Shown here in pieces: positions 1 through 64,000 of a stretch of 64,000 nt of DNA (position 1 is the first letter of the stretch; each line of letters begins with the position of its first letter). The notes beneath the pieces are model-generated. The model was not told the origin of the DNA. It saw nothing but the letters and a program-made list of their open reading frames with translations, and made no database searches. The position numbers and the translations under genes are program-made. The stretch is taken from assembly GCA_946415315.1 (NCBI GenBank), contig CAMKRZ010000015.1, positions 1 through 64,000 on the forward strand, in the 5' to 3' direction. Source of the DNA: an uncultured Lachnoclostridium sp. Its GTDB lineage: Bacteria > Bacillota > Clostridia > Lachnospirales > Lachnospiraceae.

Positions 1-114
1 CTGCTGGCCGCCCTGCTGAGGCTCCTCCTGCTGCTGGCCGCCCTGCTGAGGCTCTTCCTGCTGCTGGCCGCCCTGCTGAGGCTCCTCCTGCTGCTGGCCG
101 CCCTGCTGAGGCTC
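1..114 (-). repeat. 30-bp tandem repeat, four copies, coding
   Basis: Units start at 1, 31, 61 and 91; the fourth is cut short near 114. One unit differs by a single base (C to T near 55). Each encodes the ten residues QEEPQQGGQQ in the adhesin stalk. The array touches the window edge, so its copy number is unknown. Confidence 0.95.
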
Positions 115-2541
115 TGTGGACGCCGTCTGGTTCATGAACGTCCGATCCGCATCACTCATTTTCCCGGATACCGCACCGTCTGCGAAATTCTTGTAATAAT
201 TCACAACTCCCGGAATCTTGACCGAAGCACCGGAAATCTCCTTGAGCGTCACATTGAGCTGTACATAGATTTCCTTGTCATCAATCGTATAATTGCCTGT
301 CGTCTCCGCTGCCTTGCCGGTCTCCGTAATACGGAAAATGTTGCGTCCCTCCGACAGAACCGTCAACGGGATCAGAATGACATTGGCATCGTTGACTATG
401 ACCAGATCCGTCTTCTCGCCGGTTGCTTTGCCGTCGCTGTCCAACACATCCGTCTGAATCGTTTCGAATTTGCCTTCCGCGGCATTATAGCGCTCCAGCT
501 TGAACTCAAACTTCTGGTCAGCCGTCGCGGGCTGATCGTCCACTTTCTTGAAAGCCTTGACGGTTACCGTTTTCTCCTTCGAGAGACCCTGATACACAAA
601 ATGGAACTCCGAAGTCTTTCCCATCGTAACTTCACCGGCGCAGACGCCCCAACCGGTAGTCGTGTCACCGAGCGTCATCTTCGCATTCGCAAGCGGCGCA
701 AGATACATGCCGCCGGAAATATGAGTGTCGATGACACTTGCTTTTGCGCAATTCCAAACCAGCTGACGGTTAATCTTGTCAGCGTAAATATTCTGTTCAA
801 CGCCGAATTTTCCGTTTACCGTATCCGTGGAATGCTCTCCGGTTCCGTCACAGAAATCGACGAACGTCTTGGAAAGGACAACATTTTCAGACGTTTTAAA
901 GTTGAACACGATCGTCTGATTCGGCTTCATCTTAATATGCAGTCCGCCGTCCTTGCTGAACGGTTTATCGGGACCGTTGTACGCATCCGCATCGATGTAA
1001 ATCGTAACTCCGTCATCAAAGCCGGAAGTATCAAGATATACCGTGTTGTCCATCACCACGGGCGCCATGGTCGCCTTCTTTGCTGCCATCGCACTCGACA
1101 CCTGCCTCATATGTGAGATCATGTCATCGACGGCAGAATCAATGTCCTCCTTGTCCATCGTGATGATCATCACATTTTCCGGAGCTGCCTCATTGACAAC
1201 CTTGCCCGCCGAATCCTCGCCGACAAACACGATCGCTGTCGCAGGAGTTTCGTTTCCGAAACGCATCGTGTCGCTCTCGATCGTACCGACAAGATAGTTG
1301 CCGGGAACCTGCTCCGAACCGTTGCCGGACAGATCGGGGTCAAAATTGAAATCGTCGCTCTTTGAATAAACCTTCGTCGCAAAATTCGTTTCGCTGTGGT
1401 TGCTCTGCGTGATCTTCGCCGCCACAATACCGTAATTCACGGCATCACCGAGGACCGAAAGAAAATCGTAATCCTTCGTCGGAACGACCTCTGACAGTTT
1501 TACCACATCACAGTTTTCAACGACGCATTTCTCCTCATCGCGAACCTTGGTAATTCCCTCATAGGAAACCGTAAATTCCTTCACTGTCGTGGTTTCGGCG
1601 ACATCATTGCTGTCTATCGCCTTCTTCGCGGAAATGACTGTGCCGGGCTTTGCCTTCAGGATCTTCACCGTGATCGGATTCCAGTTACCGGTGTATTTCT
1701 CCGTGGTCGCATGCCCGTTGTTGTCGATCCAGTCCCCGTTGACTCCGCCGATGCCCTGAACTCCGTTACCGTTTTTCACGACAAAATCCACGGTGCTGTC
1801 CGTACCATTTGTCTCCAGCGGAGCGAAATAATACGAGTACGTGTTGGATTTGTGCTTTGCGGAAACCAGAATGTAGTATCCGTCATCCGCCGTAATACTC
1901 CCCGCTCCCGGATCAAAGGCAATCCGGACCGCATACTCCTGTGTGCCTTTGTACAGATTGATCTCACCGGAGTTTTGCGTGACGGCAGAACTCATAAAAA
2001 TGTATCCGTCAATCGTATCCGTCTGCGCGATCAGCTTGCTGTAGCCGACCCCGGAATACTCAAACCCTTTTCTGGCGGGGGATTTTCCGTAATACAGTCT
2101 CACGCTGGAAGCTTCATACCGGTCCGGATCATATTCCAGGGGAACAAAATCCGGAACACTGTAGTATACATTGCCGGTCTCCGACGTAGTCCAGAACTCC
2201 GTGATGTGCAACGTCTGTGTTGCCTTGTTGATATCGTCGATCACGGCAAAGCCATATCCCGCAACATCACCGGTCTGCTTGTCCTTCAGTGTTACAACCA
2301 CATGATAATTCTCGTTTTCATGCGGTCTGCCGTTGTTCAGCCGCGGCTCCGGCGCAGTTAACGTGGTCTGATCAAACGCGTAGAAATTGATCGTAACCGC
2401 AAAATCCGTCACCGGTTCTGCCACGGCAATTCCGATCGTCGAGAACAGTGACATCACCATCACCAAAACCATGACGATCGCCGTCATTTTTCGACGTTTT
2501 TTTCTTCCGTTTACTCGTGCTCCTCCTCTTTTCACTGCCAT
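1..2541 (-). CDS. Surface adhesin with FctA-like pilin domain and Q/E/P repeats (3' end outside window)
   Basis: Secreted surface protein, 847 codons visible, running off the window edge. The ATG at 2541 follows a GAGGGA ribosome site. Residues 1-41 are a long basic signal peptide ending in AVA. About residues 495-620 (VYLDTSGF, ADAYNG, then INRQLVWN and HISGGMYLAPLA) resemble choice-of-anchor A domains. About residues 655-780 (VKAFKKVDD, FKLERYN, then FRITETG) resemble the Spy0128/FctA pilin fold, in which a Lys and a Glu form an isopeptide bond. The last visible 38 residues are four near-identical ten-residue Q/E/P/G repeats, probably a wall-spanning stalk. A sortase signal would lie outside the window. 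The role in adhesion is inferred from domains only; domain names are from memory of the families. Confidence 0.85.
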   Translation of the reverse strand, partial: MAVKRGGARVNGRKKRRKMTAIVMVLVMVMSLFSTIGIAVAEPVTDFAVTINFYAFDQTTLTAPEPRLNNGRPHENENYHVVVTLKDKQTGDVAGYGFAVIDDINKATQTLHITEFWTTSETGNVYYSVPDFVPLEYDPDRYEASSVRLYYGKSPARKGFEYSGVGYSKLIAQTDTIDGYIFMSSAVTQNSGEINLYKGTQEYAVRIAFDPGAGSITADDGYYILVSAKHKSNTYSYYFAPLETNGTDSTVDFVVKNGNGVQGIGGVNGDWIDNNGHATTEKYTGNWNPITVKILKAKPGTVISAKKAIDSNDVAETTTVKEFTVSYEGITKVRDEEKCVVENCDVVKLSEVVPTKDYDFLSVLGDAVNYGIVAAKITQSNHSETNFATKVYSKSDDFNFDPDLSGNGSEQVPGNYLVGTIESDTMRFGNETPATAIVFVGEDSAGKVVNEAAPENVMIITMDKEDIDSAVDDMISHMRQVSSAMAAKKATMAPVVMDNTVYLDTSGFDDGVTIYIDADAYNGPDKPFSKDGGLHIKMKPNQTIVFNFKTSENVVLSKTFVDFCDGTGEHSTDTVNGKFGVEQNIYADKINRQLVWNCAKASVIDTHISGGMYLAPLANAKMTLGDTTTGWGVCAGEVTMGKTSEFHFVYQGLSKEKTVTVKAFKKVDDQPATADQKFEFKLERYNAAEGKFETIQTDVLDSDGKATGEKTDLVIVNDANVILIPLTVLSEGRNIFRITETGKAAETTGNYTIDDKEIYVQLNVTLKEISGASVKIPGVVNYYKNFADGAVSGKMSDADRTFMNQTASTEPQQGGQQQEEPQQGGQQQEEPQQGGQQQEEPQQGGQQ

Positions 2542-3002
2542 AATTCCCTCTTTCTTTCTTCGTGTTCCCACGTGCTTTTCTTCGTAAAATGAAGTGAAAA
2601 CAACAAGCCTTACACAACGCGCTGCGTAAAGCATCCGGAAACACGTATGCCAATTTGAACGGGTTACACGGAAAGATGATCATTCCTGCAGAAACTTCTT
2701 TGATCTTCAGAACACTCTTTTTTCAGATACACGTATAGACAATTCCCCCGCAAAAAATGATACCTTCCCATAAAGAATCATAGCATTGTGAGCGTGATAC
2801 GTCAAACCAACGAAGACGCGAGATCGTTTCGTCTGAGCGTTTCGTTGCGTAGTTGAAAAATTTGTGGTAATTATCCTGTATAATTGACGCAAAATACGTA
2901 ATTTTGCATAGTTGTGCATAATCGCTTATGCTGAGACGGCTACATGTACATGTGGTATCCAAAGCCATAACCGTCTTCCCCTGCCGATTCTCCTCTGCAC
3001 CG
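2542..3002. other. Divergent intergenic region between adhesin and YitT genes
   Basis: This AT-richer spacer of about 460 bases must hold the minus-strand promoter of the adhesin gene and its leader. I see no convincing -35/-10 pair for that gene, no RNA gene and no coherent reading frame. One copy of the dispersed motif CGTAAAATG lies at 2583-2591. Confidence 0.6.
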
Positions 3003-3948: not shown

Positions 3949-3975
3949 GCACACATTTTCCGAATTATATGCAAT

Positions 3976-4072: not shown

Positions 4073-5956
4073 CTACCGGACCGTATCGTTTTCTGCCCCG
4101 CCCTTTTTCCTCTTTCGGAATACCGCAAATGCCAGCACACCGACCACAAGGATTCCGGCTGCTGCACAGACAACGGGGACGATCCACTTCCGCGGCTGAG
4201 ACTCCGCTTTCGTTGTCTCAGCAGGCGCTCCTGTCACCGTAGGCTCCGGAGCCGGCGTGGGAGTTATCTCCGCCTCACCCGGATCGTCCGATGTATTCTC
4301 TCCCGCAACGACAACCTTACTCGCCTTCACCTGCTTTGCATCGATCGCCTCGCCTTTCACCAGTGCCTCGACAATGCCTTCCGCAGCATTGGTAATTCCG
4401 CTGTAGAGCACAGGGTTCTCCGGGTCAAGTACAAGCACGGTGTACTCACCTTCCTGAAGCGTAACCTTGTTGTACTCGATCCTCTTCGCATCGCGCGAGG
4501 CAAGGATATCGAGCAGGCCGCACTGCAGTGTGATCTTCTGCTTCTCGGTGGAAGGGATCACCACGTAGTAGCGTTCCGTGCTCGGAAAATCAAACAGAAG
4601 TTTTCCCGAATCGTACACGGCTCCGCAGACATGCTGCTCCTGCGCGAACTCGCAGTTTTCGCCGTCAGCGAAGACCACCTGCTTTCCTTCGCTGTCGAAA
4701 ATATTCACGAAGGAATCGCCCTCATAGATGAGAAAGCCGTAATCGGAGCGGCAGGTCTGAAGTCTCGAACCGTCGCCGATGGCGTCCAGCGCGGCAAGGT
4801 AAAGCTCCGGCGCATGCGCAACGAACGGATTGATGAGGTCACCCTCACCCACTTCTGTGGGAGCGCCCAAGAAGTTGCTCACGACAGAGAGCCCGCTCTC
4901 CGCCCCCATGAACGCGGATCGCAGCGTCTTCTGCGCTGTCAATACGTAAAATGCAGGCGAGATCAGCGTGCTCGCCAGCGTCGCGATCTTGCGGTCCATG
5001 GAGATGATATTGTCGGTATGAATCTGAAAATCCCCGGCAAATGAATATCGGAGATAGATCGGCAGAAACGTCTCATAATACGTGGCATAATCGTCGTCGG
5101 TGATCGATGTCGGCAGCAGGTACGTTGTCCCGAACCGACCGTATCCCCACTCACCCGGAGCAACTTTGGGCACCGGATCCGCCGGATGTACGAACGAGAC
5201 GATGTTGGCGTACAGCGCCTCCGAGGCTTCCTGCAACCGCAACGTGTTCCGCGGGCAGGCAAAGCAGTAGGCGTAAATATTTTCCGGAGACACGTTCCCG
5301 AGCTGCGATTCCGAAGCCAGCTTATCGAGAGAAGCTGCAGCCAGATTGCTCACCGCCGCGCCTCTCGAGTAACCGGTCAGAAGAACGGACACCTTGCGGC
5401 CCTCGGGCATTTGCCGGATATACTCCGTCAGGTCGTTCACTACAAGGTCCGCGCACGTGCGGAAGCCCTCGTGATCCTCCGTCGTTCCGAGCGTAAAATT
5501 GCCGGCCCACTCCGTCTGGTAATTTCCGCCTCGCACCACCGCTACGATCAGCGACTCGTTCTCGCCGATCTCCCGGACACCGTAGGCATACCCGATCGTA
5601 TCCGGTCCCGGAAATGTGTAATGCACCGTCTTCTCATCGTAGCGAATGTTCAGAAGGTCAAACAGCGCAAGCAGATTCGAGGCGTCCGATTTCTCACCGG
5701 CGCCGAAGCCCGCGACCGCCAACCGCAAGGACATCCGGGCGAGCTCCGGGTTCATCCGGTAGGAAGACTCCGCGAAGAAACTGTCACGGTAAATGTACCC
5801 AAGCTCCGTGTCCTCCTGCGTACCGGAGACGCCGCTCGTCTGATACGGAAAACTGCCTTCCAAGTCCTCCGCATACGCCGTGTGCGAAAAAAGAGCGCAG
5901 AAAAGAAAGACCAGTAAAACCGCCATCTTTCCGATTCTGCGCTGTTGTGTTCTCAT
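4073..5956 (-). CDS. Secreted lipase-like alpha/beta hydrolase with C-terminal membrane anchor
   Basis: 627 residues from the ATG at 5956, which has GAGGGA 5-6 bases upstream; a TTG at 5968 directly after the previous stop is the less likely alternative. A signal peptide covers residues 1-29 (ending TAYA). A Mbeg1/DUF2974-like serine hydrolase domain carries the nucleophile elbow GYSRG near residue 195 within VSVLLTGYSRGAA. Near residue 570 a Pro/Thr spacer begins, then one membrane segment (about 595-615) and a basic tail, so the enzyme sits outside the cell tethered by its C-terminus. The substrate cannot be read. It is the last gene of an operon with the genes ending at 5969 and 6335. A second secreted lipase-like protein lies at 19452-21584. 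Confidence 0.85.
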   Translation of the reverse strand: MRTQQRRIGKMAVLLVFLFCALFSHTAYAEDLEGSFPYQTSGVSGTQEDTELGYIYRDSFFAESSYRMNPELARMSLRLAVAGFGAGEKSDASNLLALFDLLNIRYDEKTVHYTFPGPDTIGYAYGVREIGENESLIVAVVRGGNYQTEWAGNFTLGTTEDHEGFRTCADLVVNDLTEYIRQMPEGRKVSVLLTGYSRGAAVSNLAAASLDKLASESQLGNVSPENIYAYCFACPRNTLRLQEASEALYANIVSFVHPADPVPKVAPGEWGYGRFGTTYLLPTSITDDDYATYYETFLPIYLRYSFAGDFQIHTDNIISMDRKIATLASTLISPAFYVLTAQKTLRSAFMGAESGLSVVSNFLGAPTEVGEGDLINPFVAHAPELYLAALDAIGDGSRLQTCRSDYGFLIYEGDSFVNIFDSEGKQVVFADGENCEFAQEQHVCGAVYDSGKLLFDFPSTERYYVVIPSTEKQKITLQCGLLDILASRDAKRIEYNKVTLQEGEYTVLVLDPENPVLYSGITNAAEGIVEALVKGEAIDAKQVKASKVVVAGENTSDDPGEAEITPTPAPEPTVTGAPAETTKAESQPRKWIVPVVCAAAGILVVGVLAFAVFRKRKKGGAENDTVR

Positions 5957-7608: not shown

Positions 7609-8778
7609 TCACATGCGAAGCATCAGCTCTTCCTCAATAACCTCGCCGCCGCGAATGTAGTGCCGAGGCACGCGCTTGCTGACCGCGCAGGTCAGCTCGT
7701 ACGGGATGGTCCCCGCGAGTTCCGCCATATGCTCGATCGGATTGCGCGGTCCAAACACTTCAACCTCCGAGCCGATGACAACACCGGGCTTGCCCGTGAG
7801 ATCGATCATGCACATGTCCATGCAGATCTTGCCGCGCTGCGGCGCCGGTCCTTCGTCGGTCATCAGGCTGCAGCGGTTGGACAGACAGCGGAAGAAACCG
7901 TCCGCATAACCGTACGGCAACACACCGATCCGCGTCGTTTGTTCCGTCTTATAGATGCCGCCGTAGCTGATCGCCGTCCCGGCGGGATAAATTTTGATCG
8001 TGGAGACGTTAGTCTTCAGCGTCATGACAGGCTTAAGCCCCAGTTCAGCGGCAAACTCGCCGTAACCGTACAGCAAAAGTCCCGGCCGTACCATATCGAG
8101 GTACGTCTGCGGATACCGCGCGACTGCGCCGGTGTTCGAGCAATGGCGCAGGCGGAATTTGTGGCCGCTGCGCTCCTCCACCCCGCTGATCACATCGGTG
8201 AAAAGCTTGAACTGATGCTCCGTATACGCCTTCGCTTCCTCCCCGGGCTCATCGGAAACCGCAAAATGAGTGAACACTCCTTCGGCATCCAGTCCCGGCA
8301 TGGAAACCGCTTCACATATACCTTCTACTCCTGTAGAAAAGAGGTCTCCGTCGCACAGATAACCGAGTCTCGACATGCCCGTATCGACCTTGATGTGGAT
8401 TCGAAGCGTGCCGCCGAGGCGTGTCGCCTCCTCCGAGTACTCCACCGCCTTCGCCTTACACGTTACCGCCTGCGTGATGTCATACTGAAGCAGCCGCTCC
8501 ACCTGCTCCTTCGGCGTGTGACCGAGGATCAGGATCGGCATCGTGATGCCGTTCAGGCGCAGTTCCATCGCCTCATCGATGCTGCTGACCGCAAGATAGT
8601 CGGCTCCGTTTTCCTGCAGCGTGCGCGCCACGATAACAGAACCGTGGCCGTAGGCATCCGCCTTCACGACTCCGAGGAATTTTACGCCCTCGCCGACGCG
8701 TTCGCGCAATGTGCGATAATTGTGAACCAGTGCGTCCAGATCGATCTCCGACCAGGTGCGTTTCAGTGTTGATTCCAT
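7609..8778 (-). CDS. alr: Alanine racemase
   Basis: Converts L-alanine to D-alanine for peptidoglycan; cytoplasmic PLP enzyme. 389 residues, usual length. The PLP lysine is K39 in VVKADAYGHG, and the second catalytic base is the Tyr of AISYGG near residue 271. The fold-type III barrel and the C-terminal beta domain are both complete (TGKPGVVIGSEVEVFG, TIPYELTCAVSKRVPRHY). Transcribed alone from the promoter at 8874-8902. No clear terminator hairpin follows; the stop is followed by a run of seven G and then T5. Confidence 0.97.
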   Translation of the reverse strand: MESTLKRTWSEIDLDALVHNYRTLRERVGEGVKFLGVVKADAYGHGSVIVARTLQENGADYLAVSSIDEAMELRLNGITMPILILGHTPKEQVERLLQYDITQAVTCKAKAVEYSEEATRLGGTLRIHIKVDTGMSRLGYLCDGDLFSTGVEGICEAVSMPGLDAEGVFTHFAVSDEPGEEAKAYTEHQFKLFTDVISGVEERSGHKFRLRHCSNTGAVARYPQTYLDMVRPGLLLYGYGEFAAELGLKPVMTLKTNVSTIKIYPAGTAISYGGIYKTEQTTRIGVLPYGYADGFFRCLSNRCSLMTDEGPAPQRGKICMDMCMIDLTGKPGVVIGSEVEVFGPRNPIEHMAELAGTIPYELTCAVSKRVPRHYIRGGEVIEEELMLRM

Positions 8779-9871: not shown

Positions 9872-9969
9872 ATCATATCATGTACACGGAAAATGCGGTT
9901 GTTACTTTTGTTCATTTCCGCGGAAATCGTTGTTACTTTTGTCTGTTCCGCGAAAAATGTTGTTACTTT
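9872..9969 (-). promoter_or_regulatory. Promoter and triple direct repeat upstream of XRE regulator gene
   Basis: An extended -10 (TGATATGAT on the minus strand; -10 at 9872-9877) is followed upstream by three exact copies of the 11-mer GTTGTTACTTT at 9898-9908, 9929-9939 and 9959-9969. The period is 30-31 bases, close to three helical turns. CCGCG-containing sequence separates the copies. The placement over and behind the -35 region fits operators for the XRE protein. Confidence 0.6.
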
Positions 9970-9978: not shown

Positions 9979-11481
9979 TCAGCCGTCGATCGGCATCCCC
10001 GTCGTGGTTCCGTCCGCAAGGTGGATGATCAACCGTCCGGTGCCGGTCGCATTCTGGTGCTGGCCCTCGATCAGGATCTCCTCGATCACCTGGCAGCACG
10101 AACTTGCGATCACCTTAGGCTTGCGCCCTTTCTGAACCTCCTCCGGGTCGAGGTCGAAGGAATCCTTCATGTTGACGTAATGGTAGAGCTGCAGACCGAC
10201 GGTAAACTCGCGCTCGTCATCCACCGGCTCTCCCTGATAATTGAACTTCAGGTAGCTGTGCGTCTTCTGGTCGTACTCGACTTCCAGTCCTTCCGAGAGC
10301 TGGTAGAACTCCGTGTGCGCGCCCGCAAGCGCCTCGTCACGGAGCATGCGCATCAAAGCATGCTTGAGCTGTGCGCCGCTTAAACGCACTAAATACACCG
10401 GATCATCGTACGGGAAGCAGACCGTAAAGTCGCCCTTCGTCACAACCGGTCCGAGTGCCTCGTTTCGGATCGAGCCCGATGCGAGCAGGAAAATATCAAC
10501 GCCGAGCGCATTTTTCAAAATATCGGAGAACAGGTCGCCGAGCTCCGTCTCACGGTTGCGCGCCGGATGCGTGAGCTCGCGGACAAATCTCGTGAGGATC
10601 TGACCGTACTTGGCGTCCGTCTGCGTCTGGTACACATCGATAACCTTCTCGATCGCAGGGTCCTTCGGGCAGGTCTGCGCGTTGATCGGGATCGGCTGCC
10701 ATGTGTAGCTGTCGATGCAATTGTTGTCCGTGTCGACCACGAAGTCGAAGCGGCCAATCTGGTCTGTACCGGTTCCCGCCTGTACGATCGGGATTCCGTT
10801 CACCTCAGCCGGCTCGGTCAGGAACGTGTGCGAGTGTCCGCCGATGATCACGTCGACGCCCCACGCCGGGTTCAGCATCGCTGCCAGTTTCTTGTCCTCC
10901 TCAAACCCGATGTGAGTGAGAAGCACCGTAAAATCGACATCGAGCGAGTTGTACGTATTGCAGATGCGCCCGATCTCGTCCGCAGCGTCCTCGAGCGTGA
11001 CGAAGGTTCCGATCAGATTGTCCTTGCGGCACTGCGCGAGCGCGATCTCGGTGATGATACCGATAAACAGAATTTTCATGCCGTCGATCTCGATGATCTT
11101 GCACGGCGCGAACAGTCTCTTGTGGTTTGTGGAGATGTGCAGGTTCGCATTGATGATCGGGAACTCCGCGCATTTTTCGAGAAATAAAAGATGCGAAAGG
11201 CCGTAGTCAACCTCATGGTTGCCAACCGTGACGATGTCCGGCGCGAGGATGTTCATGATCTGGATCGTGGAGACGCCCTTGAATTCGGAGTCGATGATCG
11301 AGCCCCGGAACATGTCGCCCGAAATGGCGTAGATGACGTTCTTCTCCTCCCTGCGTACCTTGTTGATGTATCCCGAGAGCATGGAAACGCCGCCCACCAG
11401 GTTCTCATCGACATTTTCCGCGAAGAAGTCGCCGTGCATGTCGTTGGAGTGGAGCAGCGTAAGTTTCTTGGTGTTCTTCAC
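9979..11481 (-). CDS. Cytosolic 5'-nucleotidase / metallophosphatase (YunD-like)
   Basis: 500 residues; hydrolyses nucleotide or nucleotide-sugar phosphoesters with a two-metal centre. The N-terminal metallophosphatase motifs are present: LLHSNDMHGDF (9-19), SGDMFRG, VGNHEVDYG, GGHSHT. The C-terminal 5'-nucleotidase domain (LFSDILKNALGVD, PYDDPVYLVRLSGAQLK) supplies the substrate pocket. There is no signal peptide or anchor, unlike secreted UshA or CD73-type enzymes, so it should be cytoplasmic like Bacillus YunD. The start is GTG at 11481 with GGAAAGG 9 bases upstream. The specific substrate cannot be read from sequence. Confidence 0.92.
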   Translation of the reverse strand: MKNTKKLTLLHSNDMHGDFFAENVDENLVGGVSMLSGYINKVRREEKNVIYAISGDMFRGSIIDSEFKGVSTIQIMNILAPDIVTVGNHEVDYGLSHLLFLEKCAEFPIINANLHISTNHKRLFAPCKIIEIDGMKILFIGIITEIALAQCRKDNLIGTFVTLEDAADEIGRICNTYNSLDVDFTVLLTHIGFEEDKKLAAMLNPAWGVDVIIGGHSHTFLTEPAEVNGIPIVQAGTGTDQIGRFDFVVDTDNNCIDSYTWQPIPINAQTCPKDPAIEKVIDVYQTQTDAKYGQILTRFVRELTHPARNRETELGDLFSDILKNALGVDIFLLASGSIRNEALGPVVTKGDFTVCFPYDDPVYLVRLSGAQLKHALMRMLRDEALAGAHTEFYQLSEGLEVEYDQKTHSYLKFNYQGEPVDDEREFTVGLQLYHYVNMKDSFDLDPEEVQKGRKPKVIASSCCQVIEEILIEGQHQNATGTGRLIIHLADGTTTGMPIDG

Positions 11482-11570
11482 TATTTCGTACCTTTCCTCT
11501 TTCCGTAAAATGACAGCCTTTGTTTATTATATCACACGCGAACCGACCAAACAACGCATTTCCGTCCGGA

Positions 11571-12743: not shown

Positions 12744-12805
12744 AGCGATATTCCTTTCCAAGCAGCATTTTCGCAACTCTGCGTCCGTTTTCTTTCGGAA
12801 AATGA

Positions 12806-13468: not shown

Positions 13469-13538
13469 TCCCAAACCTCACAGTGGTCATTTTTCGTAAA
13501 CCCAAACATCTCATGATCACAATCGGCCCCAAATCCTG

Positions 13539-15191: not shown

Positions 15192-15238
15192 AGATCTACA
15201 TACCTTCCGGGTCAGCCGGGCATTTTCCGACCGATGGC

Positions 15239-15958
15239 TCAATCCTTTTTTTCCACCGTCTCCATGAAGATCGCCTCAAGAGAGGAACGATCCCTGACGA
15301 CCTCGCTCATCAGGCCCGAAGTGACAAGGTGTCCTTCCTTGATGATGGCAACCTTGTTGCACAGTTTCTCGGCCACGTCAAGGACATGTGTGGAGAAGAA
15401 GATCGCCGCTCCGGCCTCGGTCATTTTCCGCATGATCTCCTTCAGAAGGAACGTCGCCTTCGGGTCGAGACCCACAAACGGCTCGTCCATGATCAACAGT
15501 TTCGGCTCGTGAATGAGGGCCGAGATGAGCACCAGTTTCTGCTTCATGCCGTGCGAATACCCCGAGATCAGATCGCCGAGCGAGTCGGTGATCTCGAACA
15601 TATCCGCGTACTCCGCGATGCGCGCCTTGCGCTCCGCTTCCGATACACCGAAAATGTCCGCGATAAAGTTCAGATACTGAACACCGGTCATGAACTCGTA
15701 GATGTCGGGATTGTCCGGCACGTACGCGATGCGGCGTTTGACCTCCTCCGGCTCCTTTGTGATGTCGAGCCCGTCAATCAGGACCGTCCCCCGGTCAAAC
15801 GCATGAATGCCGGTGATCGCCTTCAAAAGCGTCGTTTTGCCCGCGCCGTTGTGCCCGATGAAGGCGTAAATGTCGCCTTTCTCCACATGGAGCGTGATCC
15901 CCGAAACACCCTTGGTCGTCCCTTTGTATATTTTCTCCAGATCACGGATTACCAGCAT
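15239..15958 (-). CDS. ABC transporter ATP-binding protein
   Basis: 239 residues, single nucleotide-binding domain. Walker A GHNGAGKTT (34-42), signature SGYSHGMKQ, Walker B LLIMDEP, switch His in FFSTHVLD. The short C-terminus and the YVPDNPDIYEFMTG Q-loop region are typical of ABC-2 exporters. Pairs with the permease at 13539-15191 and lies 12 bases after the stop of the DUF3137-like gene, so the three are probably cotranscribed. Confidence 0.93.
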   Translation of the reverse strand: MLVIRDLEKIYKGTTKGVSGITLHVEKGDIYAFIGHNGAGKTTLLKAITGIHAFDRGTVLIDGLDITKEPEEVKRRIAYVPDNPDIYEFMTGVQYLNFIADIFGVSEAERKARIAEYADMFEITDSLGDLISGYSHGMKQKLVLISALIHEPKLLIMDEPFVGLDPKATFLLKEIMRKMTEAGAAIFFSTHVLDVAEKLCNKVAIIKEGHLVTSGLMSEVVRDRSSLEAIFMETVEKKD

Positions 15959-15970: not shown

Positions 15971-16996
15971 TTACACGTCGTCTTTCGGCTCATCCGCCGA
16001 CGGTGCAGCCGACGGATCACCGTACTCCGCCGAATCCCACCAGCGTTCCCGATTCTCATGATCCTTCTTCTGCTGCTCGCGCTGTTCCGACTTCGACGGC
16101 TCCTGCTCCTTCACATCGTCCTGCAGGCTGAGCGCCTCCCCGATCATTTTCACATAGGAAAGTTCGATCGTCGCATAAGCGGACTGAATCTCCCGGGTCG
16201 TATCCCCGTCGGGTTTCACCTCAAGCGGATTGGTTGCCCTGCAAAGCACGACGTGGACTTTGTCCTTCACAAAGCTGATCTCAACCGAGGAACTCTCCAG
16301 ACGCTTAAGGTTTTTGTGCAGCTCGATCAGCGCCCGCATCAGCTTAGGAGTCAGCGCGTAAAATGCCTCTGCCTTGTCTTCGCAGAAGCAGCGGAACAGC
16401 TTGTTAAACTCACTGTCCTCCGTCTCGATCTCCGGAATGGTCTTGAACGTGAGTACTGATCTCGGCCGGATCACCAGAGGCTTCTGCAGACACTTCGGCG
16501 AATCATAGATGATCCATGCATCGTGATGATTGTCGCCTATGTGATTATCCGCCCTGCGAAACCGAATGCCGTTCGGACAAACTCCTTCCAGATAGTCATC
16601 GCTGTAGGAAAGATTGCCGGCAACCAGGCCATCCTCACCGATGTCATCGTCGGTAAACCCTCTGTCCGGGTTATACTTGTACTGAGAAAACAGTTTGTCG
16701 GCGGCATCCGAAACGATCATGATCTTCAGCCTCCGCATGCAGTCTTTGATCGCATCCGCATTTTTCCGGGAAAACTTATAGAGAACAATGGCTGTCACCA
16801 ACAAAACCACTCCGATGGCAACCATGATCAATACAACCTTTTGCTTCCCGGTCTGCGTCTCGGCATCCTTTATCCACGATACCATGCTCACCATGCCGCA
16901 GAGCACTGCTACCCATACTACATACAGCACCGTCAATATGGTGCCCTTGAACGAATATTTTTGATACTCCTCCCGAAGTTGTTCAAACCGTTCCAT
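15971..16996 (-). CDS. DUF3137-like membrane protein
   Basis: 341 residues from the ATG at 16996 (GGGGGGA 6 bases upstream). Two adjacent hydrophobic segments (about 18-42 and 54-75) are followed by a long soluble domain (NLSYSDDYLEGVCPNGIRF, FNKLFRCFCEDKAEAFYALTP) resembling DUF3137 proteins. The charged tail is Lys/Glu/Gln-rich. Function is unknown for the family. Close spacing to the ABC genes suggests it belongs to that exporter unit. Confidence 0.75.
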   Translation of the reverse strand: MERFEQLREEYQKYSFKGTILTVLYVVWVAVLCGMVSMVSWIKDAETQTGKQKVVLIMVAIGVVLLVTAIVLYKFSRKNADAIKDCMRRLKIMIVSDAADKLFSQYKYNPDRGFTDDDIGEDGLVAGNLSYSDDYLEGVCPNGIRFRRADNHIGDNHHDAWIIYDSPKCLQKPLVIRPRSVLTFKTIPEIETEDSEFNKLFRCFCEDKAEAFYALTPKLMRALIELHKNLKRLESSSVEISFVKDKVHVVLCRATNPLEVKPDGDTTREIQSAYATIELSYVKMIGEALSLQDDVKEQEPSKSEQREQQKKDHENRERWWDSAEYGDPSAAPSADEPKDDV

Positions 16997-17049
16997 TGTA
17001 ATCCCCCCATTTTTCGAAATATACATCACACTATGTAAGCGAATTCTGC

Positions 17050-43626: not shown

Positions 43627-43668
43627 CATCATTTTTCACATCATTTTTCGAGCGATTTTCGGCCAAAA

Positions 43669-50674: not shown

Positions 50675-50770
50675 TCACGCTACTCCTTCCATGTTCAGTT
50701 TGAAAGAATATATCAGGTCATTCATGGCACTTTATTTCCGATAATACGGAAAATGTGCTCATTCCGTATA

Positions 50771-54756: not shown

Positions 54757-54771
54757 CATTTTTCGTAAAAT
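54757..54771. repeat. Paired dispersed motif in the rpoB leader
   Basis: CATTTTTCG directly joined to CGTAAAAT (shared CG) makes a dyad CATTTTNCGNAAAAT in the untranslated leader of rpoB. The same paired form occurs at 31330-31344 and 36479-36493 inside genes. Single halves (CGNAAAATG) are scattered throughout the window. Confidence 0.7.
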
Positions 54772-56621: not shown

Positions 56622-58994
56622 TCAATCCGTCAGCTCATACGGATTAAACCCGTTTACGGCCATGACAAACCATGCCGTGGGGGCTATGTGCCGATCATCG
56701 GAGTACTCCCAACGAGACCCGTCGGAGAGGTAAATGCCGGTAAACAGGTGTTTCACCGAAGCCGCGGGGAAGAGTCCGCCCTTCGACTGCAGGGAAACCA
56801 GCGCGTCCATCACCTGCTCGTAGTCGGTCCATTCACCGCGTTTGCGCAACAGGAGGGCCGTGAAAGCGCTGCCTTCCGCCCAGAACCCTTCCTCCTCGCC
56901 GCTCACGCGGAACGGATACGCACCTTCCTTCGTCTTCATGGAACGCACCAGATCGAGCGCTTTTTCGTACGGTTCGAAGAAATCGCCGAGCGACAGCGCG
57001 CACCATACCTGCGCATCCAGCACGATGACCTCCTTCGACGGAGTCTTGCCGTCATTTCCTGTCCCCGTGCAGAACAACCCGCGCTTCGCATCGTACATCG
57101 AGAGGATAAACCGCTTCGCGCTCTCCGCTGCCTGTGCGTACTTTTCTTCCTTTGTCATCGACGCAAGAGCGTTAAACACCGCGTACAGATCCAGGTTATG
57201 CTCCGTGCTCTTATAGGTATGCTTCGTCACGACCTTCGGATCCGCTTCCTCCCAGCCGTCAAAACCGGCCGTGAAACCGTCCGTTCCGTCCTTACAGTTC
57301 TCAAGAACCCAGTCCATCAGCGAGCATGCCGCACTCAGATACTGTTTTCCGCCGTAGGCTCGGTAATACTGCAGCAAGGCCATCGCGACAAACGCAGTAT
57401 TGCCGCAGTTGCTCCCCACCTGGTAGGCATCCTCGTACCACGTATAGGACTCCGCTTCATACCATCCCGGCAGACGCGCGCCGCTGTTCCACCCCGGGAA
57501 CGAGGAGATGTCACCTGCCGCATAAGCATTTCGCACGCGCTTTCCCTTGTTCCCCTTGTTATCGGAAAGGCTTCTGTCGTTGTCGATCGCATACAGGAAC
57601 GCGTCGACGATCGTCTTGGCTTCCGACTTCTTTCCCTCCGAGAGGAACGCCATCGCCGCGAGTGCATTGTCATAGGAAAATGCTGCGTTTTTGATGTACT
57701 GATTTTCCGTATCATACGAGCGCAACAGGATCGGCGCCTTGGTCGCGCTCCGGATCTTGCCCGAAAAATAAATCTCGTCAAGGTAAAATACGGTGCTGCC
57801 GATCCCGCTCCTCTCATCGTTCAGAACATAGCCGAAGCCGCAGACGATGCTGCTCATGTCCGCGCCGTCCAGCGGGATCACATATTCCTTCCATTCCTTC
57901 GTGAGTTCGATCCAGCCGATACTCTGCTTCGTCGCGCTGTCCGGATACTCCACGGTCTTTTTATTGTTCGACGCATTGTAACCGAAGCCGCAGGTGAACA
58001 GCTCCAGTCGCTCGCCGCCCCGTTCTCCGCGCGCATAGAAATGAAGCTCGTTCGCGCCGGTTAGGTCAAGTCCCTGGCCCGGCTGATCTCCCTTGTTGAG
58101 CGCCGGCGTGTTACTTCCCTCCGGAATATATCCCTGCATGAACATCCATCCGCCCCAGGAGCCGACTTTGATCAGCTGCTCGCATCGGATGCAGGACGTG
58201 CCGCTGTACGGATTTTGCGTCCAGTTCTCGTTCATCTCCTTCACAAGACTTGCGTCAAGTCCGTACATTTTCGCCTTTTGCGTAAAATGGTTTTCCGTCA
58301 CACCGAAATCATGATACACGTAAACCACCGACTGCTCGTCGTTCAAACGCTTCGCAAGAGCCGCAAGGGCAGCGTTCTTCGCCTTCTCATACGTTTTTGC
58401 CTTGGCTTCGCTCACGCCCTCCGTCGGAACTGCTGTAGGAATCGCCGTAGGAGTCGCTGTCGGAACTGCTGTCGGGACTGCAGTAGGAGTCGCTGTCGGA
58501 ACTGCCGTAGGTGTAGCCGTTGGGACTGCTGTCGGCTTTGCTGTAGGAACGGCTGTAGGAATCAGCGTCGGGATAGCAGTCGGCGTCGCTGTCGGAACTG
58601 CCGTAGGAGTCGCTGTCGGAACAACAGTAGGCGTTGCCGTAGGAACTGCCGTCGGTACTGCTGCAGGTGTTGCTGTCGGCTCAGCAACAGGCGTAACAGT
58701 CGGCGTGGCCGTCGGAACGGTCGTGAGCACTGCCGTCGGTTCCACCGCCGGCGTCGCAGTCGGCGTGGCTGTCGGAACAGTCGTGGGCACTGCCGTCGGT
58801 TCCGCAGCCGGTGTCGCGGTCGGTGTCGCGGTCTGTATTGGTGTCAGTACTTCCGTGGGCACTGTTGTCGGTGATTCTGTCGGCGATTTTTCATTGCTGT
58901 CCTGCCTGCCGCACGCTGACAATGATCCGATCAAAACCAGCAGGATTGTCAGCCCGACGATCATTCTGTTCACATAACACTTTCTCTCTCTCAT
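56622..58994 (-). CDS. Large lipoprotein with Thr/Pro stalk and predicted (alpha/alpha)6-barrel domain
   Basis: 790 residues from the ATG at 58994 (AAAGGAGG 10 bases upstream). Lipobox LSAC with Cys28. Residues about 40-205 are a degenerate P-T-A-T/V-P repeat stalk. Residues about 215-440 resemble a galactose-binding-type beta-sandwich (GANELHFYARGERGG, STVFYLDEIYFSGK). Residues 450-790 are helical, with the spacing of six-hairpin glycosidases (NAAFSYDNALAAMAFLSEG, YWYEDAYQ-like Trp/Tyr segments, GSAFTALLLRKRGEW, TAWFVMAVNGFNPYEL). Probably a cell-surface polysaccharide-acting protein; no catalytic acid can be assigned with confidence. Confidence 0.85.
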   Translation of the reverse strand: MRERKCYVNRMIVGLTILLVLIGSLSACGRQDSNEKSPTESPTTVPTEVLTPIQTATPTATPAAEPTAVPTTVPTATPTATPAVEPTAVLTTVPTATPTVTPVAEPTATPAAVPTAVPTATPTVVPTATPTAVPTATPTAIPTLIPTAVPTAKPTAVPTATPTAVPTATPTAVPTAVPTATPTAIPTAVPTEGVSEAKAKTYEKAKNAALAALAKRLNDEQSVVYVYHDFGVTENHFTQKAKMYGLDASLVKEMNENWTQNPYSGTSCIRCEQLIKVGSWGGWMFMQGYIPEGSNTPALNKGDQPGQGLDLTGANELHFYARGERGGERLELFTCGFGYNASNNKKTVEYPDSATKQSIGWIELTKEWKEYVIPLDGADMSSIVCGFGYVLNDERSGIGSTVFYLDEIYFSGKIRSATKAPILLRSYDTENQYIKNAAFSYDNALAAMAFLSEGKKSEAKTIVDAFLYAIDNDRSLSDNKGNKGKRVRNAYAAGDISSFPGWNSGARLPGWYEAESYTWYEDAYQVGSNCGNTAFVAMALLQYYRAYGGKQYLSAACSLMDWVLENCKDGTDGFTAGFDGWEEADPKVVTKHTYKSTEHNLDLYAVFNALASMTKEEKYAQAAESAKRFILSMYDAKRGLFCTGTGNDGKTPSKEVIVLDAQVWCALSLGDFFEPYEKALDLVRSMKTKEGAYPFRVSGEEEGFWAEGSAFTALLLRKRGEWTDYEQVMDALVSLQSKGGLFPAASVKHLFTGIYLSDGSRWEYSDDRHIAPTAWFVMAVNGFNPYELTD
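58430..58880 (-). repeat. Degenerate Thr/Pro-coding tandem repeats
   Basis: About 450 bases of imperfect repeats with an 18- to 30-base period built from GTCGG, GCTGT and GCCGTAGG blocks. They encode the P-T-A-T-P stalk of the lipoprotein. Such arrays often change length by slippage. Confidence 0.85.
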
Positions 58995-59178: not shown

Positions 59179-59328
59179 TATTTGAATTCAGTTGGCAATT
59201 TTATGCGCTTTTAAGATAAATTACGCTCTATTTATATGTGACAACTCATTTTTCGGCAAATTCATGATGAAAATTCCGGATTTTTTAACGATCTCTTATC
59301 CTCTGCTGAATTTTCCGCAAATTTGTTA

Positions 59329-60599: not shown

Positions 60600-62132
60600 A
60601 TGGCTTACGAAATGAACGTCAGTTTCAACGACATCATCACGCTCTACGGCAAGAATCACAAAGTAGGCAACAAACACGATATCAAGCGAGCCTACGAGTA
60701 CGCCTCCGAGAAGCATTCCGGCATGCTGCGCGGATCGGGCGAACCGTACATTTGTCATCCGCTCCGAACCGCCAGATTCGTCACCGAATGGGGTTTTGAA
60801 AGTGATGTCATTATGGCCGCCCTGCTTCACGATGTCGTTGAAGACTGTGACACCCCGCTGTCCGAGATCCGCGAACTGTTCGGAACCGGCGTCGCCGACA
60901 TCGTCGATGTCGTCACCTCCCTCAGCGACAGGGATTTCGCCGACCATACGCTCACCAAGGAGCAGCGGAACCTTCTCTCTGACGCCCGACTTCAGAAGAA
61001 GATGAACAACAAGGCGCTGTACGTGAAGATCGCGGACCGCATCGACAATCTGAACACTCTCTTCGGCGTCCCGGAAGCCAAGCGCATCCCCAAGGCCGAG
61101 CACACCCGCGAGATCCTCATTCCGATGGCTCGAATGGAAAATGCCTACCACCTTGTCAACATTCTCGAGGAACTCTGCTTTCAGATCGAGCACCCGAAGA
61201 TGTACGTCGACATGTCGAAGCAGTACAAGGCGCTCTGTAACGCCAACAGCAGAAAATGTAGGGAATCCCTGGAGACACTCTCCAACGTCTTCGACCCGCA
61301 TTTTACCGGCAATGAGGCCGAAGGTCTTGATCGATACCACCGCTGTATCGTCGATTTCACGTACAATCCCCGATCCTGCATCAGCATTTTCCGACAGATC
61401 AGCCGCAACGCGGACAACCTTCGTGACGACTGGCGCGCGCTGCTCTCCAAGGACAACATCGCTCTCTACGACCTCAAGCTGATCGTCAGTGACAAGCTCT
61501 CCGACGACAATTCCGACATTCGACCCAACGATGTTTTCTTTCAGTATTTCGACAAAATTCTGTCCCGCAAGGGCTTCTATCTGATCCGGTACAGTCTCGC
61601 GTCCTACAAGGACATCGGGTATTTCCTGATCTCCGACGAGATGGACAACCTTTACCGGCTCTTCGTCCGGACCGAAACCGAGTACCGGCGTTTCCAGTGC
61701 GGCAACATTATCGATGCCGACAGTTCTCTTGCAATCTCCGACATTAACGAAATCGAGCCCCGCGACACCTACAATGAGAAGATCAAGGTGTTCCGCAAGG
61801 ACGGGTCTGCTATGATCATCGATAAAGGTGCAACAGTGCTCGATTTTGCATTCTACATTCACGGTGAACTCGGTTACCACTTCGACTATGCCATGATCGA
61901 TGAATCCAAAACGCATCTTCCGAAGAGTACCCGTCTGAACGAGGGCGATACCATCACGATCGTCGCCAACGAGAACATTCACCCTGACATTTCGTGGTTC
62001 AACAGCGTCAAGACCAGCCGCGCCGTACATCACCTGGTTCGATATTTCTCCGACGTCTCCAACACAAACCGCTATCTACAGGAGCTCGCGGAGAAGAAAA
62101 AACCTTCTGCGGAAAATGCCGCGCAGGCATAA
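60600..62132 (+). CDS. HD-TGS protein, RelA/SpoT-like hydrolase without recognisable synthetase
   Basis: 510 residues from the ATG at 60600 (GAAGGAGG 7 bases upstream). The N-terminal HD domain keeps the (p)ppGpp-hydrolase residues: H53 in PYICHP, H77-D78-V-V-E-D, and D146/N150 in VKIADRIDNLNTL. The middle (about 190-390) lacks the synthetase signatures of long RSH enzymes. A TGS domain lies at about 395-465 (KIKVFRKDGSAMIIDKGATV, DFAFYIH, LNEGDTITIV), but the zinc-finger/ACT regions of RelA are missing. A hydrolase-only alarmone enzyme or a hydrolase of another nucleotide is the likely role. Confidence 0.88.
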   Translation: MAYEMNVSFNDIITLYGKNHKVGNKHDIKRAYEYASEKHSGMLRGSGEPYICHPLRTARFVTEWGFESDVIMAALLHDVVEDCDTPLSEIRELFGTGVADIVDVVTSLSDRDFADHTLTKEQRNLLSDARLQKKMNNKALYVKIADRIDNLNTLFGVPEAKRIPKAEHTREILIPMARMENAYHLVNILEELCFQIEHPKMYVDMSKQYKALCNANSRKCRESLETLSNVFDPHFTGNEAEGLDRYHRCIVDFTYNPRSCISIFRQISRNADNLRDDWRALLSKDNIALYDLKLIVSDKLSDDNSDIRPNDVFFQYFDKILSRKGFYLIRYSLASYKDIGYFLISDEMDNLYRLFVRTETEYRRFQCGNIIDADSSLAISDINEIEPRDTYNEKIKVFRKDGSAMIIDKGATVLDFAFYIHGELGYHFDYAMIDESKTHLPKSTRLNEGDTITIVANENIHPDISWFNSVKTSRAVHHLVRYFSDVSNTNRYLQELAEKKKPSAENAAQA

Positions 62133-63118: not shown

Positions 63119-63131
63119 GTCAGTTGCTCCT

Positions 63132-64000
63132 TCAGTTAAACTTTTTGCGAAGTCTGTTGATCTCGCCGGTGATCAGTTCGAAGTTCTTTTTGATCTCTGC
63201 GTTGTCAAGCAGCGGCATGGAGGAATACTGCGAAGCGTCAATGTAGTCCTGCGAGAACTGGATCGAGCAAAGGCAAGTGAGCAGGTCTTCAACATAGTCG
63301 TCGAACTCCCCGTTCGGGCAGCTCACGCCCATCAGTCCATAACAGGTATAGTACCAATTGCCGAAGAAATAGCCGCTGAAATCGAGATCGACCAGTGCGC
63401 CCGCAATGCCGAGAGTACATGCTTTTCCGTTCTCATCGATAAATGTACCGACGCCGACCGTCTCGGGTCCGTAACCGCTGTAAGGTCCCTGATAGTTCTC
63501 GACCTGGGCAAGCTGAATACTGTTCATCGTCGGGAAGAGCTGCTTGCCATCGTAGCGCATCTGGAAGTCAATACAATTCTGCCAGCAGTCCGTAATGCCT
63601 CGCACAGTGGCACTCGACAACACCGGTCCGTTGGAAATGATGCCGCCGGTGGTATCGTAGTACGACAGATATCTCCGGGATGCCTCGCTCTTGTGGAACG
63701 GTGCCAGGGCTCCGTAGTAGAAGACCTGTCTGCTCGGCATATTCGGGTCGTAAATGCGATAGCAGATACCGCTGTAACTGCCGGAGACGTCGACACGCCA
63801 ACCCTCGGGGATCAGCAGAGTGAAGTAACCGCCGTTGTAGCTCACAAGGTTCAGTTTCTCCCCCTGTTGTGAAGTGTTGCCGGTGTCACCCGTGTCACCG
63901 GTATCACCGGTGTCGGCTGTGGCGCTCTTGCCGGAATTGATCACCGGCAGTGTCGTCACGCCACCGTCCCGAACAGTGAGTATTCCGTAATTATTGGCCG
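63132..64000 (-). CDS. Hypothetical protein with GDT repeats (5' end outside window)
   Basis: The frame stays open through the window edge (NNYGILTVRDGG upstream of the GTG at 63959), so the start lies beyond 64000. 288 codons and the stop are visible. A short Gly-Asp-Thr repeat linker (four units, 63868-63916) separates the N-terminal part from a 245-residue domain rich in Tyr, Gly and Cys (YFTLLIPEGWRVD, YGPETVGVGTF). It is probably secreted or a membrane protein domain, but the signal would be outside the window. Not recognised. Stop 13 bases before the methyltransferase start: same operon. Confidence 0.75.
   Translation of the reverse strand, partial: ANNYGILTVRDGGVTTLPVINSGKSATADTGDTGDTGDTGNTSQQGEKLNLVSYNGGYFTLLIPEGWRVDVSGSYSGICYRIYDPNMPSRQVFYYGALAPFHKSEASRRYLSYYDTTGGIISNGPVLSSATVRGITDCWQNCIDFQMRYDGKQLFPTMNSIQLAQVENYQGPYSGYGPETVGVGTFIDENGKACTLGIAGALVDLDFSGYFFGNWYYTCYGLMGVSCPNGEFDDYVEDLLTCLCSIQFSQDYIDASQYSSMPLLDNAEIKKNFELITGEINRLRKKFN

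What the first reader, a model, noticed from the sequence alone, without database searches (positions are those of the whole stretch)
1..64000. Dispersed 9-mer CGNAAAATG, strongly over-represented and enriched between genes
Reading both strands I count at least 42 exact matches to CGNAAAATG (mostly CGGAAAATG and CGAAAAATG). By hand, base composition predicts about one or two. Intergenic copies start at 2583, 3954, 9887, 9951, 11506, 12796, 13488, 15221, 17008, 23823, 28400, 35749, 40780, 41783, 43642, 50747, 54757 and 59247: 18 copies in about one tenth of the sequence. Others are inside genes, in different reading frames, so codon usage does not explain them. The two strands are equally represented (about 20 each), which argues against a polar Chi- or KOPS-like signal. 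Dispersed short motifs of this kind are known as DNA-uptake sequences in Neisseria and Pasteurellaceae; I know of none in Clostridia.
Basis: partly seen in the sequence, partly recalled or inferred. Interest (0 to 1): 0.78.

Follow-up and report, generated by a model that had tools for sequence, protein, structure and literature searches.

The report
Dispersed self-DNA mark with dialects
A gut bacterium's genome is sprinkled with some 1,700 copies of one nine-letter DNA word, related bacteria carry altered versions of the same word, and the pattern looks like a self-recognition mark used when DNA is taken up or recombined, of a kind I know of only in distant bacteria.

Summary
The genome (Lachnospiraceae; nearest named relatives mostly ruminant-gut MAGs) has 1,703 copies against 150 for the reversed word. 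Copies lie in genes (7- to 11-fold over expectation, by Markov order; all six frames) and between genes (11- to 14-fold), equally on both strands, without leading-strand bias; they are partly conserved in position. Other species and genera carry related 'dialects' (GGNAAATG, GGNCAATG, GNAAATGC), sharing roughly GGN[A/C]AATG. New feature: close copies tend to point in opposite directions, mostly within 200-500 bp and weakly to 1-1.5 kb, also in sister species and in pooled other dialects. Codon usage, transposon scars, KOPS and ordinary operators fit poorly. Two mechanisms remain: a DNA-uptake-type mark (0.40) and an unpolarised Chi site read by AddAB (0.30). For uptake: comEC whole in 18 of 22 genus genomes and PilC-type genes in 13 of 13 tested, but not in two motif-bearing genera. 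For Chi: AddB, the Chi reader, is specially diverged and lacks its P-loop in the main CGNAAAATG clade, though the match is imperfect. Receptor and function are unproven.

The parts
332..340 (+). CGGAAAATG
   Evidence: in gene
1173..1181 (-). CGGAAAATG
   Evidence: in gene
2485..2493 (-). CGAAAAATG
   Evidence: gene edge
2583..2591 (+). CGTAAAATG
   Evidence: intergenic
3954..3962 (-). CGGAAAATG
   Evidence: intergenic
4945..4953 (+). CGTAAAATG
   Evidence: in gene
8260..8268 (+). CGCAAAATG
   Evidence: in gene
9887..9895 (+). CGGAAAATG
   Evidence: intergenic
9951..9959 (+). CGAAAAATG
   Evidence: intergenic
11171..11179 (-). CGAAAAATG
   Evidence: in gene; motif also in G012
11412..11420 (-). 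CGGAAAATG
   Evidence: in gene
11504..11512 (+). CGTAAAATG
   Evidence: intergenic
12796..12804 (+). CGGAAAATG
   Evidence: intergenic
13488..13496 (-). CGAAAAATG
   Evidence: intergenic
15221..15229 (-). CGGAAAATG
   Evidence: intergenic
15422..15430 (-). CGGAAAATG
   Evidence: in gene
16357..16365 (+). CGTAAAATG
   Evidence: in gene
17008..17016 (-). CGAAAAATG
   Evidence: intergenic
18030..18038 (+). CGGAAAATG
   Evidence: in gene; motif also in G016
22287..22295 (-). CGGAAAATG
   Evidence: in gene
23823..23831 (+). CGAAAAATG
   Evidence: intergenic
24185..24193 (-). CGAAAAATG
   Evidence: in gene
26019..26027 (-). CGAAAAATG
   Evidence: in gene
26288..26296 (+). CGAAAAATG
   Evidence: in gene
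28400..28408 (+). CGGAAAATG
   Evidence: intergenic; motif also in G012, not in G002, G010, G016, G019
31330..31338 (-). CGAAAAATG
   Evidence: in gene
33826..33834 (-). CGGAAAATG
   Evidence: in gene
33922..33930 (+). CGGAAAATG
   Evidence: in gene
35749..35757 (+). CGGAAAATG
   Evidence: intergenic
36479..36487 (-). CGGAAAATG
   Evidence: in gene; motif also in G010, G012, G019; one-base variant in G002; not in G016
39258..39266 (+). CGCAAAATG
   Evidence: in gene; motif also in G010, not in the six others aligned
39400..39408 (-). CGGAAAATG
   Evidence: in gene; motif also in G002, G010, G012, G019, G006, not in G016 or G014
40780..40788 (+). CGTAAAATG
   Evidence: intergenic
41783..41791 (+). 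CGGAAAATG
   Evidence: intergenic
43642..43650 (-). CGAAAAATG
   Evidence: intergenic
46319..46327 (-). CGGAAAATG
   Evidence: inside rho
50747..50755 (+). CGGAAAATG
   Evidence: intergenic; not kept in the five relatives aligned
54757..54765 (-). CGAAAAATG
   Evidence: intergenic; motif also in G002 and G012, not in G010 or G006
58281..58289 (+). CGTAAAATG
   Evidence: in gene
59247..59255 (-). CGAAAAATG
   Evidence: intergenic
61385..61393 (-). CGGAAAATG
   Evidence: in gene
62110..62118 (+). CGGAAAATG
   Evidence: in gene

Best explanation
CGNAAAATG is a dispersed mark of own DNA, one dialect of a family of marks in Lachnospiraceae (skeleton roughly GGN[A/C]AATG). Shown: the enrichment, lineage specificity, related words in other lineages, lack of strand polarity, the excess of opposite-facing close neighbours, and partial conservation with turnover by substitution. 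Inferred, most likely mechanism: a cell-surface or competence protein prefers DNA that bears the word when free DNA of relatives is taken up; fragments that carry it enter and recombine more often, so each copy that arises by mutation is favoured and accumulates (molecular drive). A slowly changing receptor shifts the favoured word, giving dialects that limit exchange between lineages.
For: 1,703 copies against 150 control in the genome. Strong enrichment both in genes, in all six frames, and between genes; sense 90, antisense 103, so a DNA-level and not an RNA- or codon-level signal. No leading-strand bias in the five sample sets measured. Even coarse density: variance/mean 0.53 over 20 stretches of 20 kb. 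Close inverted (dyad) pairs of copies, as described for USS in H. influenzae terminators (PMC5217627, passages). Dialects differ between species and genera and share a core, as for DUS (PMC3630211, passages). The host encodes comEC and a type IV pilus operon. The strong over-representation inside genes suggests drive more readily than weak selection for each site (inference).
Against: Uptake, binding and competence are untested. PilC/ComGB-type PF00482 hits are missing from G110 (95% complete) and G175 (87%), which carry dialects, and present in G014 and G020, whose words are weak, and in G068 and G203, where no dialect was looked for. comEC is present in 22 of 22 family genomes of either kind, so it does not discriminate. 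The deficit of same-orientation neighbours is not expected if one site per fragment suffices in any orientation (as PMC1939737 argues for H. influenzae, passages) and was not seen in a small, provirus-derived Pasteurellaceae sample (15 direct, 11 inverted at 40-1000 bp). Fine spacing over both strands is near random (gap CV 0.87; 1.11 in relatives). The AddB change points to Chi.
Confidence: 0.4

Rival explanations
1. Chi-like recombination hotspot: the word is read on one strand by the AddB subunit of AddAB as it degrades from a break, which turns degradation into recombination; dialects follow changes in AddB.
For: AddB was found in 196 of 200 family genomes, 165 of 165 good ones. It is specially diverged in the main CGNAAAATG clade: 465-559 bits for its seven complete single matches against 666-735 in ten other congeners; AddA does not drop (805-872 against 814-975) and ComEC relative rates are equal. 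AddB of the 10 clade members aligned lacks the GxxGxGK[ST] P-loop, while the nuclease D-[YF]-K and the Fe-S cysteines remain. The clade's stem is the longest inner branch of the AddB tree as printed (0.96), and G094 and G110 are the longest tips. A directional reader would explain why close copies of the same orientation are rare while opposite ones are not.
Against: No leading-strand polarity (136 of 291 in G000), whereas Chi is polarised in E. coli (PMC8022716, introduction). The AddB change is a single event on the tree and covaries with phylogeny, and the match is imperfect: by count over control, G001 (7.5-fold) and G005 (5.4-fold) exceed clade member G016 (4.7-fold) although their AddB scores and P-loops are ordinary (dialects cross-match in such counts). 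GGNCAATG-rich G147, G088 and G162 have ordinary AddB (996, 924, 905 bits), though G093 is lower (E 1.8e-194). G175 has a strong word but no AddB and only a weak, helicase-like AddA match (87% complete). The tree program warned that the long tips G094 and G110 may be misplaced. The B. subtilis F210 position does not follow dialects.
Confidence: 0.3
2. Binding site of an abundant dimeric chromosomal (nucleoid or segregation) protein that prefers head-to-head half-sites, the motif being a half-site.
For: Excess of inverted pairs at short range; overlapping palindromes of the form CATTTT.CG.AAAATG; T-rich stretch upstream of the core.
Against: Few copies have a neighbour within 60 bp (14 of 266 gaps); the orientation effect reaches beyond 200 bp, although weakly (200-1500 bp: 75 direct, 109 inverted, P 0.006); density is even, without a poor or rich domain in 20 sampled stretches.
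Confidence: 0.15
3. Methylation or restriction-linked mark, or a context-dependent mutation or repair bias that makes the word accumulate (HIP1-like).
For: Very sharp core: single mismatches within AAAT of the core are hardly enriched (o/e 0.3-2.2).
Against: Asymmetric word; related words in related lineages rather than abrupt switches; orientation-dependent spacing has no explanation here. No methylome was available.
Confidence: 0.08
4. Scars or ends of a small mobile element.
For: Many copies are intergenic and some are paired.
Against: No extended similarity beyond the 9-mer apart from weak T-richness; at aligned positions lost copies differ from the motif by one base in 60 and by two in 89 of 273 cases; copies lie in all frames of genes.
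Confidence: 0.02

Closest known systems
DNA uptake sequences (DUS) of Neisseriaceae
   Same: Thousands of copies, dialects with a shared core that follow phylogeny (PMC3630211, passages)
   Different: Sequence unrelated; Gram-positive lineage; no ComP-like receptor shown; orientation-dependent spacing; no uptake data
Uptake signal sequence (USS) of Pasteurellaceae
   Same: 9-bp core, similar copy number (1,471 in H. [quoted passage not shown]
   Different: Deficit of same-orientation neighbours not seen in my small USS sample; receptor and apparatus unknown here
Chi sites of AddAB/RecBCD
   Same: Over-represented dispersed word; reader AddB present and remodelled in the main clade; orientation matters in the spacing
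   Different: No leading-strand polarity; stronger enrichment than I recall for known Chi; word unlike AGCGG, GAAGCGG, GCGCGT or GCTGGTGG (listed in PMC8022716)
KOPS/SRS segregation signals (recalled)
   Same: Dispersed short words
   Different: Those are strongly polar (recalled); this is not
HIP1 of cyanobacteria (recalled)
   Same: Extreme dispersed over-representation, lineage-specific
   Different: HIP1 is palindromic; this is not

Membership tests
DUS/USS-type uptake sequences | Strong genome-wide over-representation of a short word in genes and intergenic DNA | tested here: met
DUS/USS-type uptake sequences | No orientation bias along the chromosome | tested here: met
   136 of 291 on the G-rich strand in G000; no significant bias in relatives, G094, G175, G007
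DUS/USS-type uptake sequences | Related dialects in related species | tested here: met
DUS/USS-type uptake sequences | Inverted pairs in part of the copies | tested here: met
   pairs within 45 bp, broad motif: intergenic 20 inverted, 2 direct; in genes 27 inverted, 10 direct
DUS/USS-type uptake sequences | ComEC plus type IV pilus apparatus in motif-bearing genomes | tested here: inconclusive
   comEC in 20 of 22 genus genomes (in pieces in G004 and G011) and 22 of 22 family genomes; PilC type in 13 of 13 genus genomes tested and in G094 but not in G110 or G175
DUS/USS-type uptake sequences | Spacing blind to relative orientation | tested here: not met
   the USS yardstick is small and provirus-biased, and that this feature defines the family is my inference
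DUS/USS-type uptake sequences | Sequence-specific receptor and uptake preference | not testable with these tools
   needs bench work
Chi (AddAB/RecBCD hotspot) | Cognate helicase-nuclease present | tested here: met
   AddB in 29 of 30 genomes tested, AddA-family match in 30 of 30; G175 lacks AddB and has only a weak AddA match (5.8e-24)
Chi (AddAB/RecBCD hotspot) | Polarised with the leading strand | tested here: not met
   PMC8022716 says candidate motifs need not be polarised to be functional
Chi (AddAB/RecBCD hotspot) | Reader AddB changes with the word | tested here: inconclusive
   clade-specific divergence and P-loop loss, one event; imperfect in G001, G005, G016 and not seen in G147, G088, G162
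Chi (AddAB/RecBCD hotspot) | Orientation-specific arrest or protection of DNA | not testable with these tools
   needs biochemistry
Transposon/MITE repeat | Extended sequence similarity beyond the word | tested here: not met
KOPS/SRS | Strand polarity | tested here: not met

The most novel reading that the evidence does not exclude
An independent origin of DNA-uptake-type self marks, with genus- and species-level dialects, in Gram-positive anaerobes (Lachnospiraceae), read directionally so that neighbouring copies alternate in orientation.
Probability: 0.33. Interest if true: 0.92.

Novelty: new variant of a known kind. Interest (0 to 1): 0.76.

Why it matters
If uptake: natural transformation with self-recognition would be routine in a large, mostly uncultured gut family, it would explain barriers to gene flow between its species, and the word could be put on constructs to make these bacteria genetically tractable. 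If Chi: it would be an extreme, unpolarised Chi system with dialects, allowing AddB specificity to be read from genomes; PMC8022716 (abstract) states that Chi-like motifs were known for only five species. Either way it gives a testable word for each species.

Tried and rejected
Codon usage: rejected, all six frames used and sense about equal to antisense. Leading-strand signals: rejected. Mobile-element scars: rejected. GGNCAATG in G206: its sample is dominated by long dispersed repeats, so it is not counted as a dialect; G088 is weak. G135, G158, G151 and G159 gave no comparable word (26 to 80 kb each). Dialect signals in G020 (GNCAATGG, 48 against 18.5) and G014 (GGNCTATG, 26 against 6.2) are weak and may be chance. 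The GGNAAATG dialect was seen in G005 and G007; the other four genomes of that AddB clade (G001, G011, G013, G021) were not sampled for words. Competence genes as discriminator: comEC too universal. A family-wide AddB link was looked at by eye for GGNCAATG-rich genera only and did not hold (G147, G088, G162 ordinary; G093 lower; G083 and G119 in pieces); no formal correlation was run. Chi-contact residues: F210 is Y in the CGNAAAATG clade and also in G003, G004, G014, G020, so not dialect-specific. Orientation test by dialect: significant within 500 bp in G094, G007 and G003 but not in G175 or G110 alone; pooled other dialects significant. Beyond 200 bp the effect is weaker: 200-1000 bp 44 direct and 59 inverted, P 0.08, in G000; successive copies more than 1 kb apart show none (81 of 162 same). 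The polarity script stopped with an error before G110 and G003, so polarity was not measured there. Conservation comparisons are all ordered pairs among 10 sets and not independent. Rows dropped: USS loci reduced from 80 held (86 stretches found) to 30 by removing near-copies; loci with weak skew (under 0.03) left out of the polarity count; three partial AddB sequences (G017, G018, a second piece of G021) left out of the alignment and tree. Papers: searches that could have shown this word, or uptake words or Chi in Lachnospiraceae or Clostridia, and did not: 20 of 42 listed; 12 of 66 listed; open-access PMC library only; some searches were for background.


Full report
Observation. CGNAAAATG occurs 42 times in the window, 21 per strand; 100 dinucleotide shuffles give 2.86 on average and 9 at most. 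The only slip is 11506 for 11504.

Host. The window lies in a 2.93-Mb, 42-contig genome.

Genome-wide. The genome has 1,703 copies against 150 for the reversed pattern. In a 464-kb sample (20 stretches plus the window) CGGAAAATG has the highest z of the 9-mers scored (166; order-3 Markov 16.1). The fine structure is C (others tolerated), G, N (G and T, then A, favoured over C, relative to expectation), A, AAAT strict, G (others partly tolerated), then rarely G, with weak T-richness upstream; single mismatches in AAAT are hardly enriched (o/e 0.3-2.2). No longer repeat surrounds the word.

Placement. Of 287 copies 193 are in genes, 90 between genes, 4 at edges; expectation is 17.9 and 6.6 by order-2 Markov, 28.5 and 8.0 by order 3. 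All six frames occur (sense 57, 18, 15; antisense 33, 46, 24), sense 90 and antisense 103. Coarse density is even: 7-16 per 20 kb, variance/mean 0.53, but gaps between successive copies over both strands are near random (CV 0.87; 1.11 in relatives). There is no leading-strand bias: 136 of 291 on the G-rich strand in G000, 95 of 178 in same-dialect relatives, 38 of 92 in G094, 34 of 79 in G175, 41 of 80 in G007 (loci with |skew| under 0.03 left out; G110 and G003 not measured).

Orientation. Copies at most 1,000 bp apart are direct 49 times and inverted 87 times; with positions kept and labels shuffled, direct pairs average 67.5 and never fell so low in 2,000 shuffles. TGATCG and GAAGAAG show no such deficit; 56 GGNCAATG words in the same DNA are few and go the other way; the reversed word is too rare to test. 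Forty random 6-mers all have direct/inverted ratios of 0.87 or more against 0.55. It repeats in eight other same-dialect genomes (39 direct, 75 inverted within 1,000 bp) and in five pooled samples of other dialects (56 direct, 106 inverted within 500 bp), although not in G175 or G110 alone. Removing close inverted pairs leaves it (40-1000 bp: 47 direct, 78 inverted, P 0.001), but it is strongest below 200 bp and weaker beyond (200-1000 bp: 44 and 59, P 0.08; 200-1500 bp: 75 and 109, P 0.006); successive copies over 1 kb apart show none (81 of 162). Same-strand gaps are more regular than shuffled labels give (CV 0.786 against 0.884, P 0.0035; relatives 0.839 against 0.943, P 0.0055). Pairs within 45 bp (broad motif) are 20 inverted and 2 direct between genes, 27 and 10 within genes.

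Distribution and dialects. In 22 genomes of the genus, own included, counts run from control level (G014 157 against 103, G020 156 against 128) to 1,801 (G006). Of 198 genomes drawn from other genera of the family, only G094 and G110 exceed four times the control. Unbiased word counts in samples show that others have related words: G094 GGNCAATG 79 against 10.3 (2,302 against 162 genome-wide), G175 GGNCAATG 79 against 9.3 (1,171 against 83), G110 GGNAAATG 90 against 24, G007 GGNAAATG 80 against 18.6, G005 GGNAAATG 27 against 6.9, G003 GNAAATGC 69 against 14; G020 and G014 weak (a few of these stretches hold withheld letters). Right-aligned they share roughly GGN[A/C]AATG, followed in the profiled genomes by a base that is rarely G. 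The alignment of dialects is my reading.

Conservation. Between relatives a motif stays a motif in 227 of 500 aligned comparisons, against 217 of 768 for control words of the same letters; by identity band (0.84-1, 0.79-0.84, 0.70-0.79) 74 of 123, 137 of 329 and 16 of 48 against 50 of 157, 151 of 535 and 16 of 76. Of 273 lost copies 60 differ by one base, 89 by two, 124 by three or more (comparisons are not independent). From the window alone, single relatives keep between 0 of 2 (G014) and 5 of 8 (G012). Copies therefore seem to arise and decay by substitution with some constraint.

Machinery: uptake. comEC was found in 20 of 22 genus genomes; G017 and G018, both incomplete MAGs, have none, and G004 and G011 have it in pieces. 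It was found in 22 of 22 family genomes chosen across motif levels. A type IV pilus operon with PilB-, PilT-, PilC- and prepilin-peptidase-like proteins and several pilin-like proteins lies on contig C5 (roles inferred from sequence beginnings and the PF00482 match). Strong PilC-type matches occur in all 13 genus genomes tested (motif-weak G014 and G020 among them), in G094, and in G068 and G203, not in G175, G206, G088 or G110.

Machinery: Chi. AddB is the Chi-reading subunit (PMC4027173 and PMC4824097, passages). It was found in 196 of 200 family genomes. In the main CGNAAAATG clade its family score falls to 465-559 bits for the seven complete single matches (G009, G010 and G015 are partial or split), against 666-735 in ten other congeners, while AddA does not fall and ComEC shows equal identity to the basal species from both clades (0.280 and 0.279, against AddB 0.331 and 0.366). 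All 10 clade sequences aligned lack the P-loop, four of six in the GGNAAATG clade have it altered, the four basal species keep it; nuclease and Fe-S residues are kept. The clade stem in the AddB tree is 0.96 and the longest tips are G094 and G110, whose placement the program flags as unsure. This is one evolutionary event and follows phylogeny. It is also imperfect: G001 (693 against 92) and G005 (631 against 117) carry relatively more CGNAAAATG than clade member G016 (922 against 198) with ordinary AddB, and GGNCAATG-rich G147, G088 and G162 have ordinary AddB.

Weighing. Density, dialects, lack of polarity, dyads and strength inside genes speak for an uptake-type word spread by drive. Orientation-dependent spacing and the AddB change speak for a directional reader such as AddAB; an uptake word that works in either orientation (PMC1939737, passages) should not care about relative orientation, and a small USS sample did not (15 direct, 11 inverted). 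Lack of polarity speaks against Chi as known in E. coli, although PMC8022716 (abstract, introduction, first part of results read) allows unpolarised Chi. I put uptake at 0.40 and Chi at 0.30. The reading protein is not identified.

Literature. No paper on such a word in Lachnospiraceae or Clostridia appeared in searches, which cover open-access PMC only and of which 19 and 46 showed only the top of their lists. PMC12616744 (search listing only) predicts a minor pilin as the Pasteurellaceae receptor.

Noticed in passing
L242-L247 (G206 stretches): Dominated by a family of long dispersed repeats with words such as CGCTTGCNGA (87 against 0.8 expected) and GTGTNAGCG (61 against 1.5); a large repeat family in a single-contig genome.
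   Followed up: partly
L299-L308 (AddB loci of the main CGNAAAATG clade): AddB has lost its Walker A P-loop while keeping nuclease and Fe-S residues; the GGNAAATG clade shows intermediate decay.
   Followed up: partly
L147, L150 (G004) and L148, L149 (G011): comEC is in two pieces in G004 and G011; G011's sister G005 has it whole; could be assembly error or recent loss.
   Followed up: no
L009-L017: Pooled relative loci also over-represent AAGGGCNAG (51 against 5.0) and CCATNAACT (34 against 2.6); nature unknown.
   Followed up: no
L267-L271 (G007): Word GTAGGNGT over-represented (26 against 2.7) beside the dialect motif.
   Followed up: no
window 47318-53941 +: A 2,207-codon open frame lies antisense to the two large genes at 46823-54610 (1,283 and 1,279 aa, taken to be rpoC and rpoB from size and order only); most likely a codon-usage shadow.
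   Followed up: no
G051 and G175: Two GGNCAATG-rich genomes (635 against 184 and 1,171 against 83; 86% and 87% complete) in which no AddB was detected; if real, a test case against Chi.
   Followed up: no
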